The notes under the pieces are model-generated. The model had not been told where the DNA came from. It ran no database searches and was given only the letters and a program-made list of their open reading frames with translations. From the IMG/VR virus record IMGVR_UViG_3300042292_000279, positions 1 through 23,618 of that record: a DNA stretch of 23,618 nucleotides; one strand, given 5' to 3'. This stretch comes from a virus. Shown here piece by piece: positions 1 to 23,618 of this stretch. Every line of letters starts with the position of its first letter. Position 1 is the first letter of the stretch. Made by a program: the position numbers and the translations under genes.

Positions 1-113
1 TGTGTTAAATGACGTAAAAACGTACCATTAGCTCTACAGTATGTTTCACCATTCAAAGGAGATACAACATATTTTTGTGATAACATTTCACTAGTTTCTT
101 TGTAACATTTCAT
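1..113 (-). CDS. 5' end of an ORF overlapping the end of terL-N; possible homing endonuclease (partial)
   Basis: In the +1 frame relative to terL, an open frame runs from ATG at 113 (or, more likely, ATG at 86) to the window edge without a stop. It covers 28 to 37 codons. From the second ATG the protein begins MLSQKYVVSPLNGETY and continues CRANGTFLRHLT. I see no strong ribosome binding site; there is only a purine-rich AAAGAA stretch before the ATG at 86. It starts inside the last codons of the split terminase, which suggests translational coupling. Free-standing homing endonuclease genes are known to sit between the halves of phage genes broken by split inteins. The segment C..NG.F.RHL loosely recalls the zinc-finger-like N-terminal part of such enzymes. 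That reading is an inference from position and about 30 residues. The alternative is that this is the continuation of a contiguous intein after a frameshift. Confidence 0.4.
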   Translation of the reverse strand, partial: MKCYKETSEMLSQKYVVSPLNGETYCRANGTFLRHLT

Positions 114-189
114 ATAAATCTTTAATATGTATTTTTACAATTTCGTTATCGTTAATTAGAACTTCAACTAGACTATCACCACGCAAACA
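91..189 (-). other. Short N-terminal split-intein fragment (32 residues)
   Basis: Residues 261-292 of the terminase fragment begin with Cys1 followed by LRGDSLVEV. This fits the intein block A pattern (Cys-x-x-Gly-Asp-[ST]-x-Val) that carries the N-S acyl shift nucleophile. The piece continues to IKDLYEML and ends at TAG (91-93). Usual split inteins divide after roughly 90-120 residues. The AceL-TerL intein, as I remember it, has a 25-residue N part that likewise ends in an EDLYKRL-type helix and likewise sits in a phage TerL. The match in host gene, length and ending is what supports the call. The C-intein is not in this window. Confidence 0.8.
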
Positions 190-969
190 TTCATATTCTT
201 GTTCCCATTTTTGAACACCAATCTTACCAATCTCTTGCTGTTTAAACTCTTCATCGCGTCCTGGTACAGTATCCCATTGTACAAAGAATGGAACAAACCC
301 GTTATTCTCTTGTTCAGCGCCTCTCCATAGTTCAGCAAATTTATTATCATCGCCGTTCGGTGTGCTAGCAATGATACAACTACCACCGGTTGATAATGTA
401 GGTGAGATTGAGGTCCAAAATTCTTCTGCAATTGACGGTTCAACAAACGCAAATTCGTCTGCAAAAAGTAACGATACGGACATACCCCGTCCACTTTGTT
501 CTGTGGTCGATTCTGATACAATACGGTTTTTATTAGCAAACTCAATTTCTAATTTATTCCAGTTATTAGGATTGATTGCAGGTTTGATCCAATTAGGTAA
601 ATTTTCATACATAAAGACGATACGTTTTACCATATCTTTAGCACTTTTAGCTTTATTAGATATAATTAAGATTTCTTTATGTTTTTGAAAGCATGCGTAC
701 CATAATAAAAAACCACATGATGTTTGTGATTTACCTACCTGTCTACTAGCACATACAATAGTATTGCGGTTCTCATGAAACGATTTAACTAAATCACACT
801 GAAAATCATATAATGTAAAACCAACCATCCCTTTTGTAGGGTGGGTAATTTTACAATACGTTTCAATAAAATATACCGGGTCTTGTATACATTTTAACAA
901 CTCTAATGCTTGTTCAGGGGTATACTCTTCAGGTGGACCGGGCATTTTTAATCTGGTATTTTTAGCCAT
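91..969 (-). CDS. terL: Terminase large subunit, N-terminal (ATPase) half fused to a split-intein N fragment
   Basis: This is the packaging motor ATPase (T4 gp17 type), which pumps DNA into the prohead in complex with the portal. The translated 292 residues contain the Walker A loop CASRQVGKS (residues 73-81), the Walker B region LLFADEF (167-173) with catalytic Glu172, and the coupling motif ASTPNG (201-206). At QEYE/C (260/261), where the linker to the nuclease domain should follow, the protein changes to CLRGDSLVEV and stops after 32 more residues. The RNase H-like nuclease domain is absent. Residues 261-292 look like an intein N-terminal segment, so this polypeptide is probably one partner in protein trans-splicing, with the nuclease half encoded outside the window. 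The start ATG at 969 has AAGGA ten bases upstream and overlaps the end of terS by 8 bases. T4 gp17 is about 610 residues. The terminase identity is very secure; the split reading is likely. Confidence 0.92.
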   Translation of the reverse strand: MAKNTRLKMPGPPEEYTPEQALELLKCIQDPVYFIETYCKITHPTKGMVGFTLYDFQCDLVKSFHENRNTIVCASRQVGKSQTSCGFLLWYACFQKHKEILIISNKAKSAKDMVKRIVFMYENLPNWIKPAINPNNWNKLEIEFANKNRIVSESTTEQSGRGMSVSLLFADEFAFVEPSIAEEFWTSISPTLSTGGSCIIASTPNGDDNKFAELWRGAEQENNGFVPFFVQWDTVPGRDEEFKQQEIGKIGVQKWEQEYECLRGDSLVEVLINDNEIVKIHIKDLYEMLQRN

Positions 970-16445: not shown

Positions 16446-17603
16446 TTAGAATATACTTCCAGTTAATATAGCTGATGTAGGAGTGTAAAACAAAATTGTG
16501 CACATACCTTTGGCAGGTACGCTAACAGATTGTTTTGCTGTATTAGAACCTGCAATATAACCTGTAATCGCTGAACAATCAACTGTAATTACCTCACTAC
16601 CAGTATTTACCAACAGAACTGTATCTCCAATACCAAAAACTCCACTTGGTACAGTAACGTTATGTCCTGTAGCAACATGTTTACCTGTATCAGTTGAAAG
16701 TAACGTATAAGCAACTGTTTGTAAATTTTGAGGAACTGTACGTATACTACCTTTACTATCAGTATAATTATTAGCAGTTACAGATCCGTTAATTGTTACA
16801 GCCCCACTAATAGACGGGTTATTATTAGATAATTTACTATTCAATTGACCTTGAATAGAAGCTGTAACACCAGATAAGAAACTTAGTTCGGTATTATTGG
16901 CACCACATATTGTATTATTTGTCGTGATAGGACCAGTAAATGCTGCTCCAGTTAGATTAGCTTTTAATAAAAATGCGTCTGTAGTAGCGGAACTAATAGG
17001 TTTATCATTATCGGATGTATTATCAACATTTGATAAACCTATATCTGATTTTGTTAAAGATACATTACCAGTCTTAGCGTTAACAGAATTAACACCAAAT
17101 ACCCAAGTTAATGTATCCCATGTTGTACCGTTACTAATAGCCCAATCACCGTAACTATAACCATTGTTAGGAGCACTATTGCTTGCAATATAAAAATTAC
17201 CAATATTACCTGCACTAGCTGCAGGTAACGATAGTGTCATATCATGCATACCTTTATAAGTCAATTGACCTAATAATGAACTAGGTAATTGGCTAGTAGG
17301 TACTGTACCATTAACAAGATCTGCTTTACTGGTTAACAGAGTAGTTGTTTCTGTTTTAGTATATGCATCTGTAATTTGGTATTGTGATAAAGTAGCTGGA
17401 CCTGTTTTGTTACCTATTTGAAACCAACCTGTACCGGTATAAATGTATATGCCGGGTGTGCTGTTATTGTAGGTATCATTTTGATAAACAATTTCACCTA
17501 CTTCCAAATTTGTTAATGCTGTTCTGGTTGCATATGTTACGTTAGAGCAAACTATATTAGCGTTCGCTGAACCAGATATAATTGTTATCCCATCTAAAAT
17601 CAT
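16446..17603 (-). CDS. Tail fibre protein, paralogue with C-terminal module A
   Basis: The product has 385 residues. An N-terminal module (1-60) contains ISGSANANIV and LEVGEIVYQND and ends in YIYTGTGWFQIG. The shaft carries the fibre repeats KADLVNGTVPTSQLPSSLLG and VNSVNAKTGNVSLTKSDIGL, then NVDNTSDNDKPIS, typical of phage tail fibres. The C-terminal module (about 285-385) begins GSIRTVPQNLQT and ends in VPAKGMCTILFYTPTSAILTGS. The same C-terminal module is in the genes at 17615-18094 and 20223-21323. The gene is 1 base from the adhesin and 11 from the next fibre gene, so all are one operon. It probably trimerises and forms part of a side fibre carrying the adhesin. Confidence 0.82.
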   Translation of the reverse strand: MILDGITIISGSANANIVCSNVTYATRTALTNLEVGEIVYQNDTYNNSTPGIYIYTGTGWFQIGNKTGPATLSQYQITDAYTKTETTTLLTSKADLVNGTVPTSQLPSSLLGQLTYKGMHDMTLSLPAASAGNIGNFYIASNSAPNNGYSYGDWAISNGTTWDTLTWVFGVNSVNAKTGNVSLTKSDIGLSNVDNTSDNDKPISSATTDAFLLKANLTGAAFTGPITTNNTICGANNTELSFLSGVTASIQGQLNSKLSNNNPSISGAVTINGSVTANNYTDSKGSIRTVPQNLQTVAYTLLSTDTGKHVATGHNVTVPSGVFGIGDTVLLVNTGSEVITVDCSAITGYIAGSNTAKQSVSVPAKGMCTILFYTPTSAILTGSIF

Positions 17604-17614
17604 TATTACACCGA

Positions 17615-18094
17615 TTAGTTAACGTTACCAGAAATTACTACTTTATTAGGTTCATAAAACAATATCTCACATCTACCACGAGTAGCTAATGTTACGGTTG
17701 TTTTAATTGTGTTGGATCCAGCAATATACGCCGTGACGTTTGAACACAGTATACTAACGTTATACTGCGTATTGCTTACTATTTGTATGTGATCCCCAGT
17801 ATTAAAAATACCCGCAGGTATTGTTATAGCATCACCTGACATGATAATAATTTTACCATTATCAGACACATTTGGTGTATACAATGTTGTTTGTACATTT
17901 GGTGTTAAACTACCTTTAAAAGAGTCCCAACTCGTACCATTATATATTTGCATACCAATATTATTATCGGTTTGATAAACGGTTTCACCTATTTCAAGGT
18001 TTGGTAGAGCGTCTTTTTGTGCTTTTGTTACTTTTGTAAGCAATACATTAGCATTTACAGAACCTTCAATCAATGTTAAGGTGCTTAATGTCAT
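17615..18094 (-). CDS. Mini tail-fibre protein (N-terminal module joined to C-terminal module A)
   Basis: The 159 residues hold only the shared N-terminal module (1-60: LIEGSVNANVLL, LEIGETVYQTD, MQIYNGTSWDSF) and the C-terminal module A (about 68-159: AITIPAGIFNTGD, VTAYIAGSNTIKTTVTLATRGRC, ILFYEPNKVVISGNV). The fibre shaft repeats present in its neighbours are missing. It may be a natural internal deletion, a short accessory fibre or a tip protein. GGAG precedes the ATG at 18094. It lies 11 and 12 bases from its neighbours, so it is co-transcribed. Confidence 0.78.
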   Translation of the reverse strand: MTLSTLTLIEGSVNANVLLTKVTKAQKDALPNLEIGETVYQTDNNIGMQIYNGTSWDSFKGSLTPNVQTTLYTPNVSDNGKIIIMSGDAITIPAGIFNTGDHIQIVSNTQYNVSILCSNVTAYIAGSNTIKTTVTLATRGRCEILFYEPNKVVISGNVN

Positions 18095-18106
18095 AATTAC
18101 TCCGTG

Positions 18107-20176
18107 TTATAATGCGTTAGATGGCATAGTATAAGATACAACTGAGCCATTTGCTTTACGTATAGTAAGCGGTAATGAATCGTACCCTGCGAGAGCTGAT
18201 ACTGGTAAATTATATGTAGCTGGTGCTAAATTTCTGCGAATAACTCTAACCGGTAGTAAATCGTGAGTATTTCCAGCAACAACTCTACCTTTATTATCAA
18301 CAGTGACATTATTATATGTTCCAGCTGTAAGCCCATTAATAGGTGTTAAATATAATTCATTTGTTGTAGGCGTTAAAGTGACATCACCTACAAAGGTTGG
18401 TAACCTCGCGCTATTTACGGTACCTGATGATAACAAGCTTGCATCCGTTGTTGTATATTGAACAGATGTACCAGCTGTAACACGTCCTTTTGTATCTACT
18501 GTAACACTATTATATGTACCAGCTGTAAGGCCAGTTATAGTAGATAAGTTTAGAGATGTTGTCCCACCCGGTGATGTAATATCTCCTGTAAATACAGGCA
18601 TCATACTCGACAGTATATTACCACTAACACTATCAAACACACCAGCGATATCGGTCGGTAATATCTTTTCAATTGAACCTGATTTACCGTTAATAGTGGT
18701 TACAACATCTAATGCAATATTACCGGTGGTGCTATTTGGCCGCACATTATTAACAGATAAAATATTTGTCAATGATATATTATGAGCACTATCCGGAGCA
18801 GTACCGTTAATTGTAGCTATATACGGGGTAGCAACATTACCGGTAAGGTCAGGTGTAAAACCATTTACTGTTAGTACAGTTGATGCTACAACACCCGCAC
18901 CTTGTGGACCAGCCGCAAGTATTCTGCTATCAACGTATGTTTTAACAGCACGTTGTGATGGGTATTTGTAATCACTATTTGATAATAATGAACCATCCGG
19001 GTCTTTATTAGCTAAAACTTCAACTTCCGTACCAGTTGCTACAGCTAAATCTATTTTAGATAAAATTTGGAAAAAGGTCGCTGGTTGACCAATAGACGTT
19101 GGTTTATAAATAGCCCAATTTCCTGTACCATCATCTTCAACAAATACCGTAACAGATGTGGTAGTGATATTTAAACTATCTCTATCTCCAATAGTATTAA
19201 CAACTAACTGAGTATTACCAGCTACAATCAAATCATACAATTTATTAAGAGTGTTACCGGTAGTAGGAACACCATCTAACAACCTATTAGTAGTTAATTG
19301 TGTAGTAGAAGCAACAAGGTCTGTTGTTTTAGATATAAAATCAGATATGTCAGTTGATATGTGTGTATGTGTTTTTGGAGTTCTTGAATCCAATAACCGT
19401 GTATCATTCCCCATCACGATTTGAGCGCTTGTTGCGTTACCTGAAGGTAATAAACTAGCACTAATACCGTCTACAACTCCCATACCTGCTAAAGTGTTTT
19501 CAAGCGATCCACTTGTTACTAAACCTTTCGAGTTAATTGTGATTTTATTATATGTACCTGCGACAGATACATCTTTTAATAAAATATCAGTTGAAGAAGT
19601 GGAGTTAGTGATATCACCCGTAAATACTGGTATTACAGATAATGGTAACTTACCAGTTGTGATATTTGCTGCATTAGTTGTATCGGTGGTAGCACTAAGA
19701 GCTAAGCCGGTAATATCAGTTGGTGCTAATTTTGTTATAATCCCTGTTTTACCATTGATAGAAGACACTCGTGATGAACTATCAATTTCTGTTTTTGTAT
19801 AGACGTCGGTTATACCTTGTCCAGAAGCTGTTGTTGGTGAAAAGCCAGCTGTAACACGACCCTTTTCATCAACCGTAACCCGAGAATATGTACCTGGTGT
19901 AACAACTGTTTTGAGGGTAAGGAAATTTGAACCGAGTGTCGAAGTTACATCACCTGCAAAAACTGGTAATTCTAAAGTACCACTGCTAGTTGAGGTAGCT
20001 GTTTTTAACCAACTGGTACCATCGTATACGTATAGCCCAACAGGGTTAGAGGTTTGATAAACAACTTCACCAACATTAGGAAACGGTAACGCAAGCCGTT
20101 GCGCCTCCGTAACATTGGGCATAACAAGGTTAGAGATCGATGAACCTTCAAGAATACTAAGATCATCTACTAGCAT
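18107..20176 (-). CDS. Large tail fibre protein with repeats, C-terminal module B
   Basis: The product has 689 residues. It has the shared N-terminal module (1-60: SILEGSSISNLV, VGEVVYQT, LYVYDGTSWLK). Four repeats of the form P.F.GD.T...L.L..v..GTY..vtVD.KGRVtaG lie near 71-111, 183-223, 527-568 and 593-635. Two or three VNG/INGKTG..-type beta repeats are present, as is an HTHISTDISDF motif (270-280). HxH motifs in fibre shafts can bind metal, as in the T4 long-fibre tip. The C-terminal module B (about 640-689: RVIRRNLAPATYNLP..., TIRKANGSVVSYTMP) resembles the end of the gene at 21385. GGAG and a late-type box lie upstream. It is a structural, receptor-facing protein; its exact place in the tail is unknown. 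Confidence 0.82.
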   Translation of the reverse strand: MLVDDLSILEGSSISNLVMPNVTEAQRLALPFPNVGEVVYQTSNPVGLYVYDGTSWLKTATSTSSGTLELPVFAGDVTSTLGSNFLTLKTVVTPGTYSRVTVDEKGRVTAGFSPTTASGQGITDVYTKTEIDSSSRVSSINGKTGIITKLAPTDITGLALSATTDTTNAANITTGKLPLSVIPVFTGDITNSTSSTDILLKDVSVAGTYNKITINSKGLVTSGSLENTLAGMGVVDGISASLLPSGNATSAQIVMGNDTRLLDSRTPKTHTHISTDISDFISKTTDLVASTTQLTTNRLLDGVPTTGNTLNKLYDLIVAGNTQLVVNTIGDRDSLNITTTSVTVFVEDDGTGNWAIYKPTSIGQPATFFQILSKIDLAVATGTEVEVLANKDPDGSLLSNSDYKYPSQRAVKTYVDSRILAAGPQGAGVVASTVLTVNGFTPDLTGNVATPYIATINGTAPDSAHNISLTNILSVNNVRPNSTTGNIALDVVTTINGKSGSIEKILPTDIAGVFDSVSGNILSSMMPVFTGDITSPGGTTSLNLSTITGLTAGTYNSVTVDTKGRVTAGTSVQYTTTDASLLSSGTVNSARLPTFVGDVTLTPTTNELYLTPINGLTAGTYNNVTVDNKGRVVAGNTHDLLPVRVIRRNLAPATYNLPVSALAGYDSLPLTIRKANGSVVSYTMPSNAL

Positions 20177-20206
20177 TAGACATAACTCCTATAATTGCGT
20201 TTTTAA

Positions 20207-20214
20207 TATTTAGA
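20207..20214 (-). promoter_or_regulatory. Late promoter-like box of the 689-residue fibre gene
   Basis: The minus strand reads TCTAAATA (TAAATA core), 31 bases before the ATG at 20176. GGAG follows near 20190. Confidence 0.5.
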
Positions 20215-20222
20215 TATGTATC

Positions 20223-21323
20223 TTAGGAAACATCACCCGATATTACAATTTCATTTGTTTTATAACACATTATAGTAGCGATACCTCTTGCAGCAAGTGT
20301 TATAGAAGCTTTAACAGCGTTTGTACCACTAATATAAGCTGTAAGAGCTGAACAAGTTATAGGTTGCGATGCTGAACTATCATTATAAATTACAACACTA
20401 TCTCCAACGACAAACACGCTCGTTGGTATAGTAACACCGCCGGTAGTGATACTAATATGCTTACCAGCATCTGTTGATGCTAATATATACGCCGCTGTTT
20501 GTAAATTTTGAGGTAATGATCTAAGGTTACCTAATGAATCTGATACAGTCCCTGTAGCAGTTACATTTCCTGTAAATGCTGGACTCGATTTAGTAGCTTT
20601 TAAATCTAAAGCTGCTTGTTGAGCGGTACTAACAGGTTTATTAACATCAGATGTGTTATCAGCATTTGTTAAACCAACATCAGATTTAGCTAACACTACA
20701 ATCCCTGTGTAGCCATTTACAGATGTGATATTAGCTGATTTGCCAATTTTAGTCCAAGCTGTACCGTTACTGACTATTTGGTCACCGATTGCATAAGTTG
20801 TACCACCGCTCGTTCCAGCTATAGATACAACATAATACCAACCATTATTGCCAGTTGCAGCAGTGGGTGGTTGAGTTGTCGATAAATCTAGTGTACCTTT
20901 AAACGTCATTTGACCTAATAATGTATCGGGTAATTGTGCCGTTGGTACTTTACCGCTAACTAAATCAGCTTTTAGTGTTAAATCTGGCTTACTGGTTAAA
21001 TCTGTATAACTACCGCTAGTCGCAACTGTAGCTAATGATGAAATAGCTGCCTTTTCGGTATCTAATTCAGCTATAGCTGTTTGAATGGTTGCTGCTGCAA
21101 TACCACCAGTAGGTGCAAACGGTATATTAGCAGCAGATGTACCTAATGGTATCCACGCTGTACCGGAGTACACTTTTAATCCTGGGTATGTACCATCGGT
21201 AACATAAATAATTTCACCGGTTTCGAGTGTTGTTAATGCTGATACTTGCGCTGATGTAATAGTAGTAGCGACAATATTATAATTAACTGAACCTTCAATA
21301 AGCTTAAAGCTATCTAAACTCAT
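20223..21323 (-). CDS. Tail fibre protein, paralogue with C-terminal module A
   Basis: The product has 366 residues. The shared N-terminal module (1-60) has KLIEGSVNYNIV and LETGEIIYVTD, then LKVYSGTAWIPLG. Shaft repeats are TAIAELDTEKAAI, LKADLVSGKVPTAQLPDTLLGQM and VNGYTGIVVLAKSDVGLTN, plus an NADNTSDVNKPVST motif. C-terminal module A (about 264-366) has GNLRSLPQNLQTAAYILAST, VTIPTSVFVVGD, and ITLAARGIATIM ending VISGDVS. It is closest in layout to the gene at 16446-17603, so the two are likely duplicates separated by other fibre genes. It has a promoter-like box at 21362 and GGAG before the ATG. Confidence 0.82.
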   Translation of the reverse strand: MSLDSFKLIEGSVNYNIVATTITSAQVSALTTLETGEIIYVTDGTYPGLKVYSGTAWIPLGTSAANIPFAPTGGIAAATIQTAIAELDTEKAAISSLATVATSGSYTDLTSKPDLTLKADLVSGKVPTAQLPDTLLGQMTFKGTLDLSTTQPPTAATGNNGWYYVVSIAGTSGGTTYAIGDQIVSNGTAWTKIGKSANITSVNGYTGIVVLAKSDVGLTNADNTSDVNKPVSTAQQAALDLKATKSSPAFTGNVTATGTVSDSLGNLRSLPQNLQTAAYILASTDAGKHISITTGGVTIPTSVFVVGDSVVIYNDSSASQPITCSALTAYISGTNAVKASITLAARGIATIMCYKTNEIVISGDVS

Positions 21324-21361
21324 TCTGTTATTTCTCCAACTTTATGATTGTTTGTAACGTA

Positions 21362-21369
21362 TATTTAAT
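21362..21369 (-). promoter_or_regulatory. Late promoter-like box of the 366-residue fibre gene
   Basis: The minus strand reads ATTAAATA (TAAATA core), 39 bases before the ATG at 21323. Confidence 0.45.
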
Positions 21370-21384
21370 GAATGAATATGATGA

Positions 21385-23618
21385 CTATAAAGATGCATCA
21401 TACGATACAATAGTTTTATCACGTTTATAGAATGATAATGTAATAGAATTAGGTGCACCCGCTGCTGCTGTAACAACAGCAGTGTCGTGAGTTGCAACAG
21501 TTTTATTACGTTTAAAGATATTCATTGTAATATTGTTTAATTTACTACCACCTACAACACGACCGGTATCATCAGCTACAACTGATAAGTATGTACCTGC
21601 ACTACCGATATTAGGTAATCTTGCTGCTGGTAATGTACCGGTTGTTAATGAACTAGCAGAAACACCTGTAGCTGGCAATCTCGCAGGATCTAATGTACCA
21701 GATGATAAATCACTCGCATTAGTAGTACCTGTAAAATAGGTTTGCCATGAACCAGCTGATGTTGACGATGCAACAAATACTTGATTAGCAGTTGGGGTAT
21801 TAGTAGCGGAAACACCACTAGATACCCTACCTTTTGTATCTACGGTTACTTGATTGTATGATCCAGCGATAACTCCAGTATTAGATAATGTTAATGAAAC
21901 AGATGTTGTACCTGATCCAGTGGCATCACCAGTAAATGATATCGATTGATTACCGGTCAGATATGTATTGGTATCAAAGCTTGCTACACCATTTGTTAGT
22001 TTTACTAGACCTGTGGATGAGTTGGACAACTCACTAACAGATGTTAATTTTGAATTTAATGGTTGTGCATCTGTTATACCATAGCCACTAATTGTAGTAG
22101 GAGTTGATGTAATGTTACTCCAAGCTGGGGTTATTAATGATGTACCAGCAGCAGTCAACCTACCTTTACTATCTACGGTAAATGTACTTGCGTATGTTGC
22201 AGAACCATACGAACTAGCAGCAACCCCGCTATTAGCTAAGGTTAACGAGGATGATGCGTTCGCTGAACCATCGAATGCTACCGACCATGTTGCGTCCCCT
22301 GTTAATGATATAGTTCTTGATGTTACTAATTTTGTAGCTACATCTGCAGATCCAACTGATGAAGCAATTTCAATATAAACACTACCGGACCATCTATACA
22401 CTTTGTTGGTATCTAACGCTAGATATAATTTACCTGTTTCACCTGTTGCTGGAAGCCCTGCGTAATTAGCAAATTCCAAGATATCATCAACATATGATGG
22501 TAACTGCGTGGATGGAACTTTACCGTCGCTACCTAATGTTGCAACACCGTTTGTTGTACCTAATAACGAGGAATTTACAGCATCTGTAATCCCATAGCCG
22601 CTAATAGTAGTAGGTTTACCTGTGATACTATCCCAAGCAGGGGTTATAGTGACATTAGTTCCTGTACTTGTAATACGACCCTTCGTATCAACAGTCAATG
22701 GTGTGATAGCAGTTGCACTGTTATTGTAAGTTCCAGATGTCACACCTGAATTAGCTAAAGTTAATGCAACCGATGTTGTCCCAGACCCGGTAGCATCGCC
22801 AGTAAACGATATCGATTGATTGCCTGTTAGGTATACATTAGTATCATAGCTTGCGGTACCATTAGTCAATCTTAATATACCAGATGATGAATCTGAAAGA
22901 CTGCTAATTGACGTTAATTTAGTTTCTAACGGCTGTGCATCTGTTATACCGTAACCACTAATAGTAGTAGGTTTAGAAGTAATATTACTCCAAGCTGGGG
23001 TTATTAATGATGTACCAGCAGCAGTCAACCTACCTTTACTATCAACTGTAAAAGTACTTGTACGTGTAGCTGTTCCGTAAGATCCAGCTGATACGCCTGA
23101 GTCTGATAATGTTAATGCGGAAGATACATTAGCAGAACCATCAAATGATGTACTCCAGGTAGCATCACCCGTTGCAGCAATTGTTCTAGCGGTTACTAAT
23201 TTTACAGCAACATCTGCTGACCCGACTGATGTAGCTATTTCAATATACAAGCTACCGGACCATCTATAAATTTTACCAGAGTCTAAGGTTATGTATATTT
23301 TACTAGATTCACCCGTCGCTGGTAATGCAGCTAAGTTAGCAAATTCTAAGACATCATCAACATATGATGGGAGCTGTGTAGTTAAAATCTTACCATCGCT
23401 ACCTAATGTTGCAACACCACTCACTGCACCCAACAACGATGAATTTACCGCATCTGTAATACCATACCCGCTAATAGTAGTAGGTTTACCTGTGACATTA
23501 CTCCATGCAGGTGTTATTGTAACAGTTGATGCGGATGTTACACGACCTTTATTATCAATGTTAAGTACGCTTGACTCAGTACTAGAACCGTATGTGCTAG
23601 CTGTCACCCCAGATGTCG
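21385..23618 (-). CDS. Repetitive tail fibre protein, C-terminal part (5' end outside the window)
   Basis: At least 743 residues are visible. The frame stays open to the window edge, and the residues just before the first visible GTG (TSG-VTASTYGSS) continue the repeat, so that GTG is not the real start. The shaft is built of W..ITGKPTTISGYGITDA, LPSYVDDILEFANYAGLPATGETGK, KVYRWSGSVYIEIA, GDATWS..FDGSAN and SGV..GTY....VDSKGRLTAAG elements, repeated with a 290-residue period. The C-terminal module B (KRNKTVATHD..., FYKRDKTIVSYDASL) resembles the 689-residue fibre. SGYGITDA is a classic tail-fibre repeat. It is probably the shaft of a long or side fibre. Confidence 0.85.
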   Translation of the reverse strand, partial: TSGVTASTYGSSTESSVLNIDNKGRVTSASTVTITPAWSNVTGKPTTISGYGITDAVNSSLLGAVSGVATLGSDGKILTTQLPSYVDDVLEFANLAALPATGESSKIYITLDSGKIYRWSGSLYIEIATSVGSADVAVKLVTARTIAATGDATWSTSFDGSANVSSALTLSDSGVSAGSYGTATRTSTFTVDSKGRLTAAGTSLITPAWSNITSKPTTISGYGITDAQPLETKLTSISSLSDSSSGILRLTNGTASYDTNVYLTGNQSISFTGDATGSGTTSVALTLANSGVTSGTYNNSATAITPLTVDTKGRITSTGTNVTITPAWDSITGKPTTISGYGITDAVNSSLLGTTNGVATLGSDGKVPSTQLPSYVDDILEFANYAGLPATGETGKLYLALDTNKVYRWSGSVYIEIASSVGSADVATKLVTSRTISLTGDATWSVAFDGSANASSSLTLANSGVAASSYGSATYASTFTVDSKGRLTAAGTSLITPAWSNITSTPTTISGYGITDAQPLNSKLTSVSELSNSSTGLVKLTNGVASFDTNTYLTGNQSISFTGDATGSGTTSVSLTLSNTGVIAGSYNQVTVDTKGRVSSGVSATNTPTANQVFVASSTSAGSWQTYFTGTTNASDLSSGTLDPARLPATGVSASSLTTGTLPAARLPNIGSAGTYLSVVADDTGRVVGGSKLNNITMNIFKRNKTVATHDTAVVTAAAGAPNSITLSFYKRDKTIVSYDASL
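21880..23618 (-). repeat. 870-bp tandem repeat inside the fibre gene
   Basis: Two copies lie about 21880-22749 and 22750-23618, offset by 870 bases. Identical stretches include the 59 bases 22115-22173 and 22985-23043. Related pairs are seen near 21929/22799, 22383/23253 and 22601/23471. The homology reaches the window edge, so more copies may follow. Divergence elsewhere shows it is not an assembly artefact of identical copies. Confidence 0.85.

What the first reader, a model, noticed from the sequence alone, without database searches (positions are those of the whole stretch)
91..189. Terminase broken by an atypically split intein with a 32-residue N fragment
The ATPase half of TerL stops 32 residues after switching to an intein block A (Cys-Leu-Arg-Gly-Asp-Ser-x-Val). 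Split inteins with such short N parts are rare. AceL-TerL, also in a phage terminase, is the one I recall, with 25 residues and a similar DLYxxL end. This would be a new, longer and divergent member (LRGDSLVEV and an extra NDNE loop).
Basis: partly seen in the sequence, partly recalled or inferred. Interest (0 to 1): 0.9.

Follow-up and report, generated by a model that had tools for sequence, protein, structure and literature searches.

The report
Split-intein phage terminase with nested endonuclease
A phage's DNA-packaging motor gene is cut in two by a self-splicing protein element whose short first part (32 residues) and longer second part flank a DNA-cutting 'homing' enzyme gene; this is a new member of a known kind, and related phages show that the arrangement is common and that one close relative carries the same element in one piece.

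Summary
On the minus strand, a 292-codon gene holds 260 residues of a T4-type terminase ATPase and then 32 residues of an intein N part, ending in a stop (189..91). The window is a complete 23,618-base IMG/VR record that stops at position 1, so it lacks the second half. Four near relatives (93% identical protein, L002-L005) have the same stop; three extend past it. They show: N part, an overlapping 301-aa HNH-type endonuclease gene (its first 37 codons lie at window 113..1), then an overlapping gene with a 109-aa intein C part ending His-Asn, then Cys and the terminase nuclease. Intein-free relatives read straight across the joint. Best explanation: protein trans-splicing of an atypically split (AceL/GOS/Cat-TerL-type) intein with a homing endonuclease nested in the split. 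It is not rare: 36 short-N split terminase inteins were tabulated, N parts 29-47 aa, 28 with a nested ORF. Most useful extra: L011, a near relative with the same intein at the same site in one piece. The insert is almost identical between window and L004 (1/189 differences against 95/780 in the extein), suggesting recent cassette transfer. Splicing and cleavage are untested.

The parts
190..969 (-). N-extein: ATPase half of the phage terminase large subunit (260 aa), with Walker A ASRQVGKS and Walker B SLLFADE
   Evidence: T4 gp17 E 1e-37; Terminase_6N E 4e-17
91..189 (-). Intein N part, CLRGDSLVEVLINDNEIVKIHIKDLYEMLQRN (32 aa, 189..94) plus stop TAG (93..91); insertion between Glu260 and the Cys that begins the C-extein in relatives
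   Evidence: CatN E 0.004; profile E 8e-6; splice joint aligns gap-free to intein-free relatives
1..113 (-). First 37 codons of the nested HNH-type homing endonuclease ORF (ATG at 113..111, alternative ATG at 86..84), overlapping the end of the intein N part and running off the record
   Evidence: translation MKCYKETSEMLSQKYVV...; 301-aa ORF in L003/L004; the same 37 codons open the ORF of L095
1..215 (-). Tract nearly identical to L002-L005 (1 mismatch, at 128) while the extein upstream differs at 12% of bases; likely recent cassette transfer, possibly an assembly join
   Evidence: 1/189 against 95/780 mismatches, Fisher p 1.5e-8

Best explanation
The terminase large subunit is encoded in two pieces joined by an atypically split, class 1 type (Cys1, Cys+1) intein. 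Piece 1 is the ATPase half ending in a 32-aa intein N part; piece 2 starts with a 109-aa intein C part followed by the nuclease half. After translation the N part docks onto the C part, completing the intein fold; Cys1 forms a thioester, Cys+1 takes over the ATPase half, the final Asn cyclises and a 524-aa seamless terminase results. Between the halves lies an overlapping 301-aa HNH-type gene, a homing endonuclease that would cut intein-free terminase alleles in a co-infecting phage so that the whole 1.3-kb cassette is copied in. Shown from sequence: the two halves, the motifs, the nested gene, the empty site in relatives, the near-identical insert in diverged phages. Inferred: docking, splicing chemistry, cleavage and homing. 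The C half is seen in near relatives, not in the window itself.
For: N part: CatN match E 0.004 and independent profile E 8e-6. C part: CatC match E 6e-9, motifs TDSH, VYDVVE, HTFYANDILSHN|C. Same architecture in three contigs that extend past the split, with the same stop in L002. L004 N260+C264 joined aligns without a gap across the joint to intein-free L006, L010 and XacN1. Nuclease residues conserved with intein-free relatives (IAIDP/IAVDP/VGVDP, ENNG, DDT). Nested ORF: phrog_5104 E 3e-16, phage endonuclease VII family E 9e-5, HNH-like core LDHII...NLQMLTW.EN shared with L094. C-part start has AAAGGA just upstream of ATGATG. 36 tabulated loci share the layout or its form without nested ORF. 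Insert 1/189 mismatches against 95/780 in the extein. No Rfam intron match.
Against: The window itself has no C half; it is taken over from relatives about 82% identical in DNA over the shared 7 kb. No splicing or cleavage has been measured. The nested protein reaches no curated Pfam HNH cut-off, and AlphaFold models of it and of the L011 intein failed (pLDDT 34 and 36). The near-identical insert could be an assembly join, since window and L002 end at the same base.
Confidence: 0.92

Rival explanations
1. The terminase is a pseudogene or carries a sequencing frameshift: a contiguous intein was broken by an error or mutation near 91-113.
For: The next ORF begins in the overlapping +1 frame.
Against: Same stop and frames in four other contigs; the +1 frame leads into a 301-aa endonuclease, not into the intein C part; a complete C half with its own start follows; 71 of 95 extein differences from L004 are at third positions, so the gene is under purifying selection.
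Confidence: 0.02
2. The insert is an RNA intron with an intron-encoded endonuclease; the terminase is joined at RNA level.
For: Terminase RNA introns with neighbouring endonucleases exist in other phages (ICP1, PMC10448857).
Against: No Rfam group I or II match; both insert ends code for intein motifs that match CatN and CatC; near relative L011 has the same insert as one open intein reading frame.
Confidence: 0.01
3. The halves are no longer spliced and the two terminase polypeptides work as separate subunits, the intein remnants being inert.
For: Genes-in-pieces caused by homing endonucleases are known, as in a phage ribonucleotide reductase (Friedrich et al., cited in PMC10448857).
Against: Splicing residues are kept on both halves (Cys1, block A, TxxH, His-Asn, Cys+1), and the contiguous sister in L011 keeps the same residues with 79-81% identity of the C part.
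Confidence: 0.05

Closest known systems
AceL-TerL, GOS-TerL and Cat-TerL atypically split inteins (S2 split, after the first helix)
   Same: Same host gene, short N part (25, 37 and 30 aa published; Cys1 in AceL and Cat, Ser1 in GOS), long C part (104-115 aa), Cys+1 (PMC11766414); sequence matches to both Cat chains
   Different: Only distantly similar in sequence; N part 32 aa; carries its own HNH-type nested endonuclease. Whether the published natural loci carry one could not be read (papers not held).
Fractured genes with split inteins and free-standing homing endonucleases (Dassa et al. 2009); phage MIJ3 PolB (PMC6892783)
   Same: Two extein-intein genes with an endonuclease gene between them
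   Different: MIJ3's N-side blocks include A, N2, B and N4, i.e. the usual late split; here the split is near the N end. Dassa 2009 itself was not held and is cited from memory and from other papers' reference lists.
Contiguous terminase inteins of Ackermannviridae (e.g. Salmonella phage CRW-SP2)
   Same: Intein in the terminase large subunit, matching the L011 intein over its full length (29% identity)
   Different: One uninterrupted terminase gene with a 159-aa intein, no nested endonuclease gene annotated
L011 contiguous intein (IMGVR_UViG_3300042505_000794)
   Same: Same site, C part 79-81% identical, flanking terminase 83-87% identical DNA
   Different: 142 aa in one frame; no stop, no endonuclease

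Membership tests
Intein (class 1) | Nucleophile at position 1 with block A motif | tested here: met
   CLRGDSLVEV from position 189; profile E 8e-6
Intein (class 1) | Block B TxxH, block F, His-Asn end and Cys/Ser/Thr +1 | tested here: met
   Met in near relatives L003-L005 (TDSH, VYDVVETESHTFYANDILSHN|C); not present within the window, which ends first
Intein (class 1) | Removal restores a continuous host protein | tested here: met
   L004 joint aligns gap-free to L006, L010 and XacN1
Intein (class 1) | Protein splicing activity | not testable with these tools
   Needs expression
Atypically split TerL intein (AceL/GOS/Cat type) | Short N part (15-37 aa published) and about 100-aa C part on separate genes in TerL | tested here: met
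   32 aa in the window, 109 aa in L003-L005; literature range PMC13014065
Atypically split TerL intein (AceL/GOS/Cat type) | Sequence relationship to both Cat fragments | tested here: met
   CatN E 0.004; CatC E 6e-9
Atypically split TerL intein (AceL/GOS/Cat type) | Split after the first helix (S2) | tested here: inconclusive
   Matches CatN almost to its end in sequence; structure prediction failed
HNH homing endonuclease (nested ORF) | HNH catalytic core | tested here: inconclusive
   LDHII..NLQ..EN pattern conserved with L094, PHROG endonuclease VII E 9e-5; no Pfam HNH hit
HNH homing endonuclease (nested ORF) | Cuts the intein-free allele and spreads the cassette | not testable with these tools
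   Indirect only: near-identical insert in diverged phages, empty sites in L006-L010

The most novel reading that the evidence does not exclude
The atypical split point near the N end of terminase inteins is a recurrent landing place for unrelated endonuclease genes, and splitting is part of a life cycle (endonuclease enters or leaves, intein becomes split or one-piece again). The window/L004 versus L011 pair would be a close natural snapshot of that conversion, and in some phages several such cassettes break one terminase into four pieces.
Probability: 0.45. Interest if true: 0.7.

Novelty: new member of a known kind. Interest (0 to 1): 0.5.

Why it matters
Only a handful of short-N split inteins are described and they are prized for protein labelling; this survey tabulates dozens of candidates in phage terminases. 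The close pair of a split and a one-piece intein at the same site (C parts 79-81% identical) makes the origin of atypical splitting directly testable: split the one-piece form or fuse the split form, and measure splicing.

Tried and rejected
AlphaFold2 models of the L011 one-piece intein (pLDDT 36) and the nested endonuclease (pLDDT 34) failed, probably for lack of alignment depth, so no fold search was run. Pfam's best hit of the nested ORF (NPC1_MLD, below its cut-off) is judged chance. Sequencing error, pseudogene and RNA intron were considered and rejected (see rivals). The window's own second half was sought: no viral contig with the insert sequence or a near-identical C half was found beyond L002-L005 and L011. 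The placing of the L003/L104 pair next to Walker-B-site inteins (94/78) was not kept when rows were dropped, so a jump between sites is not claimed. A first alignment of the 32-aa N parts with the whole intein misplaced them and was not used for the N part. Dassa 2009 and Aranko 2014 are not held, and no paper on nested endonucleases in AceL-type loci was found in the held library; absence there is not evidence of novelty.

Full report
What is there. The window is a whole IMG/VR record of 23,618 bases. On its minus strand the last long gene before the end of the record is a 292-codon ORF, 969..91. Residues 1-260 are the ATPase half of a T4-type terminase large subunit (T4 gp17 E 1e-37; Pfam Terminase_6N E 4e-17). 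Residues 261-292, CLRGDSLVEVLINDNEIVKIHIKDLYEMLQRN, are an intein N part: they match the solved CatN fragment (E 0.004), and a profile made from 22 other short-N terminase inteins finds exactly this stretch among all reading frames of the window at E 8e-6, with the next best at 0.35.

What follows the stop. A second ORF starts inside the N part in the +1 frame (ATG at 113..111, or 86..84) and runs off the record after 37 codons. A search of IMG/VR gave four contigs whose protein is 93% identical (L002-L005). L002 ends at the same base as the window; L003, L004 and L005 continue. They show that the second ORF is a 301-aa gene (L004 6857-7762), overlapping the N-part ORF (stop included) by 23 nt, and that a third ORF (L004 7749-8870) overlaps its end by 14 nt. 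The third ORF begins with 109 residues of intein C part, ending FYANDILSHN, followed by Cys and the terminase nuclease domain (CatC E 6e-9; Terminase_6C E 2e-9). An AAAGGA motif precedes its ATGATG start.

Evidence of insertion. Relatives L006-L010 (58-70% identical) have no intein and read ...QEYECEFIS... across the site. Joining the L004 exteins (260 + 264 residues) gives a protein that aligns without a gap at the joint to L006, L010 and Xanthomonas phage XacN1. The nuclease half keeps the acidic motifs of intein-free relatives. So both halves look functional and the cassette (L004 6781-8075, 1,295 nt) is a clean insertion between Glu260 and Cys.

The nested gene. It matches phrog_5104 (unknown function, E 3e-16) and the phage endonuclease VII family (E 9e-5). 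It shares an HNH-like core (LDHII...NLQMLTW.EN) and some N-terminal cysteines with an ORF in L094. T4-like and Campylobacter phages carry relatives of its C-terminal part. Its role as a homing endonuclease is inferred from family and position.

Sign of mobility. Between the window and L004 the terminase extein differs at 95 of 780 bases (71 at third positions), but the shared 189 bases of the insert differ at one (Fisher p 1.5e-8); the near-identical tract starts 26 bases upstream of the insertion. This is what homing with co-conversion would leave. An assembly join at a shared sequence cannot be excluded, because the window and L002 end at the same base.

How unusual is it. A profile search for related C parts returned mostly short-N split inteins in T4-type terminases, at Walker A, at or near Walker B, and at the window's site after the ATPase domain. 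Of 36 such loci tabulated (not dereplicated), N parts are 29-47 aa where the length could be read (34 loci), 28 have a nested ORF and 25 of these overlap the start of the C part; 8 have no nested ORF of 60 aa or more. Of 21 nested ORFs scanned one by one, Pfam recognises HNH_3 (L040, L105, L117), HNH plus NUMOD3 (L123), GIY-YIG (L124, L125, L170, L180) and, more weakly, DUF559 or TnsA-like nucleases (L112, L158, L128); the others have no clear nuclease hit in Pfam. So the window's N part of 32 aa is ordinary for its kind. Published natural examples have N parts of 15-37 aa, with AceL-TerL and GOS-TerL split after the first helix (PMC13014065; PMC11766414).

The instructive relative. L011, from a 79-kb contig with about 87% identical terminase DNA to L004, carries the same intein at the same site in one uninterrupted reading frame of 142 aa, without endonuclease. 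L003 and L104 (the same contig as L011) are sisters with 100/98-99 support. On that tree the split/contiguous state changes at least five times, three forced by well-supported branches. Which way the change went in this pair is not settled: most of the tree is split, which favours re-fusion in L011, but repeated splitting of one-piece inteins is also possible.

How it most likely works. Inferred steps: the two precursors are made from one message; the N part docks on the C part (as described for Cat, PMC11766414); Cys1, Cys+1 and the terminal Asn carry out class 1 splicing; the ligated terminase packages DNA. The nested enzyme cuts intein-free alleles and recombination copies the cassette. Shown here: sequence anatomy, empty site, conservation of splicing motifs, near-identity of the insert. 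Not shown: splicing, cleavage, and the window's own C half.

Verdict. New member of a known kind. Interest lies mainly in the split/one-piece sister pair and in the scale of the nested-ORF pattern.

Noticed in passing
L186 366-6243 (IMGVR_UViG_3300022187_001873): One terminase gene apparently broken into four pieces by three short-N split inteins, each with a different ORF nested between its halves (257, 401 and 296 aa open frames; the first looks like GIY-YIG by eye)..
   Followed up: partly
L129 1-4247 and L184 2374-5509: A terminase piece of only 11 residues (CLVIDEMAFIE) lies between two inteins: intein C part, mini-extein, next intein N part on one ORF. L129 has three short-N split inteins plus a further intein at Walker A cut by the contig end..
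   Followed up: partly
L011 6001-9597: Terminase with two inteins: a split one at Walker B (30-aa N part, nested ORF of about 400 aa) and a one-piece one at the window's site, so one trans- and one cis-splicing would be needed..
   Followed up: partly
L134 3956-4001 and L108 3983-4001: Split inteins whose halves overlap or nearly touch with no ORF between them, although relatives have one: the split persists without the nested gene..
   Followed up: partly
window 1: Window and L002 end at exactly the same base inside the nested gene, pointing to an assembly branch point there..
   Followed up: partly
window 16446-23616: Several neighbouring minus-strand ORFs look like related repetitive tail-fibre-like proteins (motifs such as GYGITDA, VDTKGRV), suggesting tandem duplication..
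   Followed up: no
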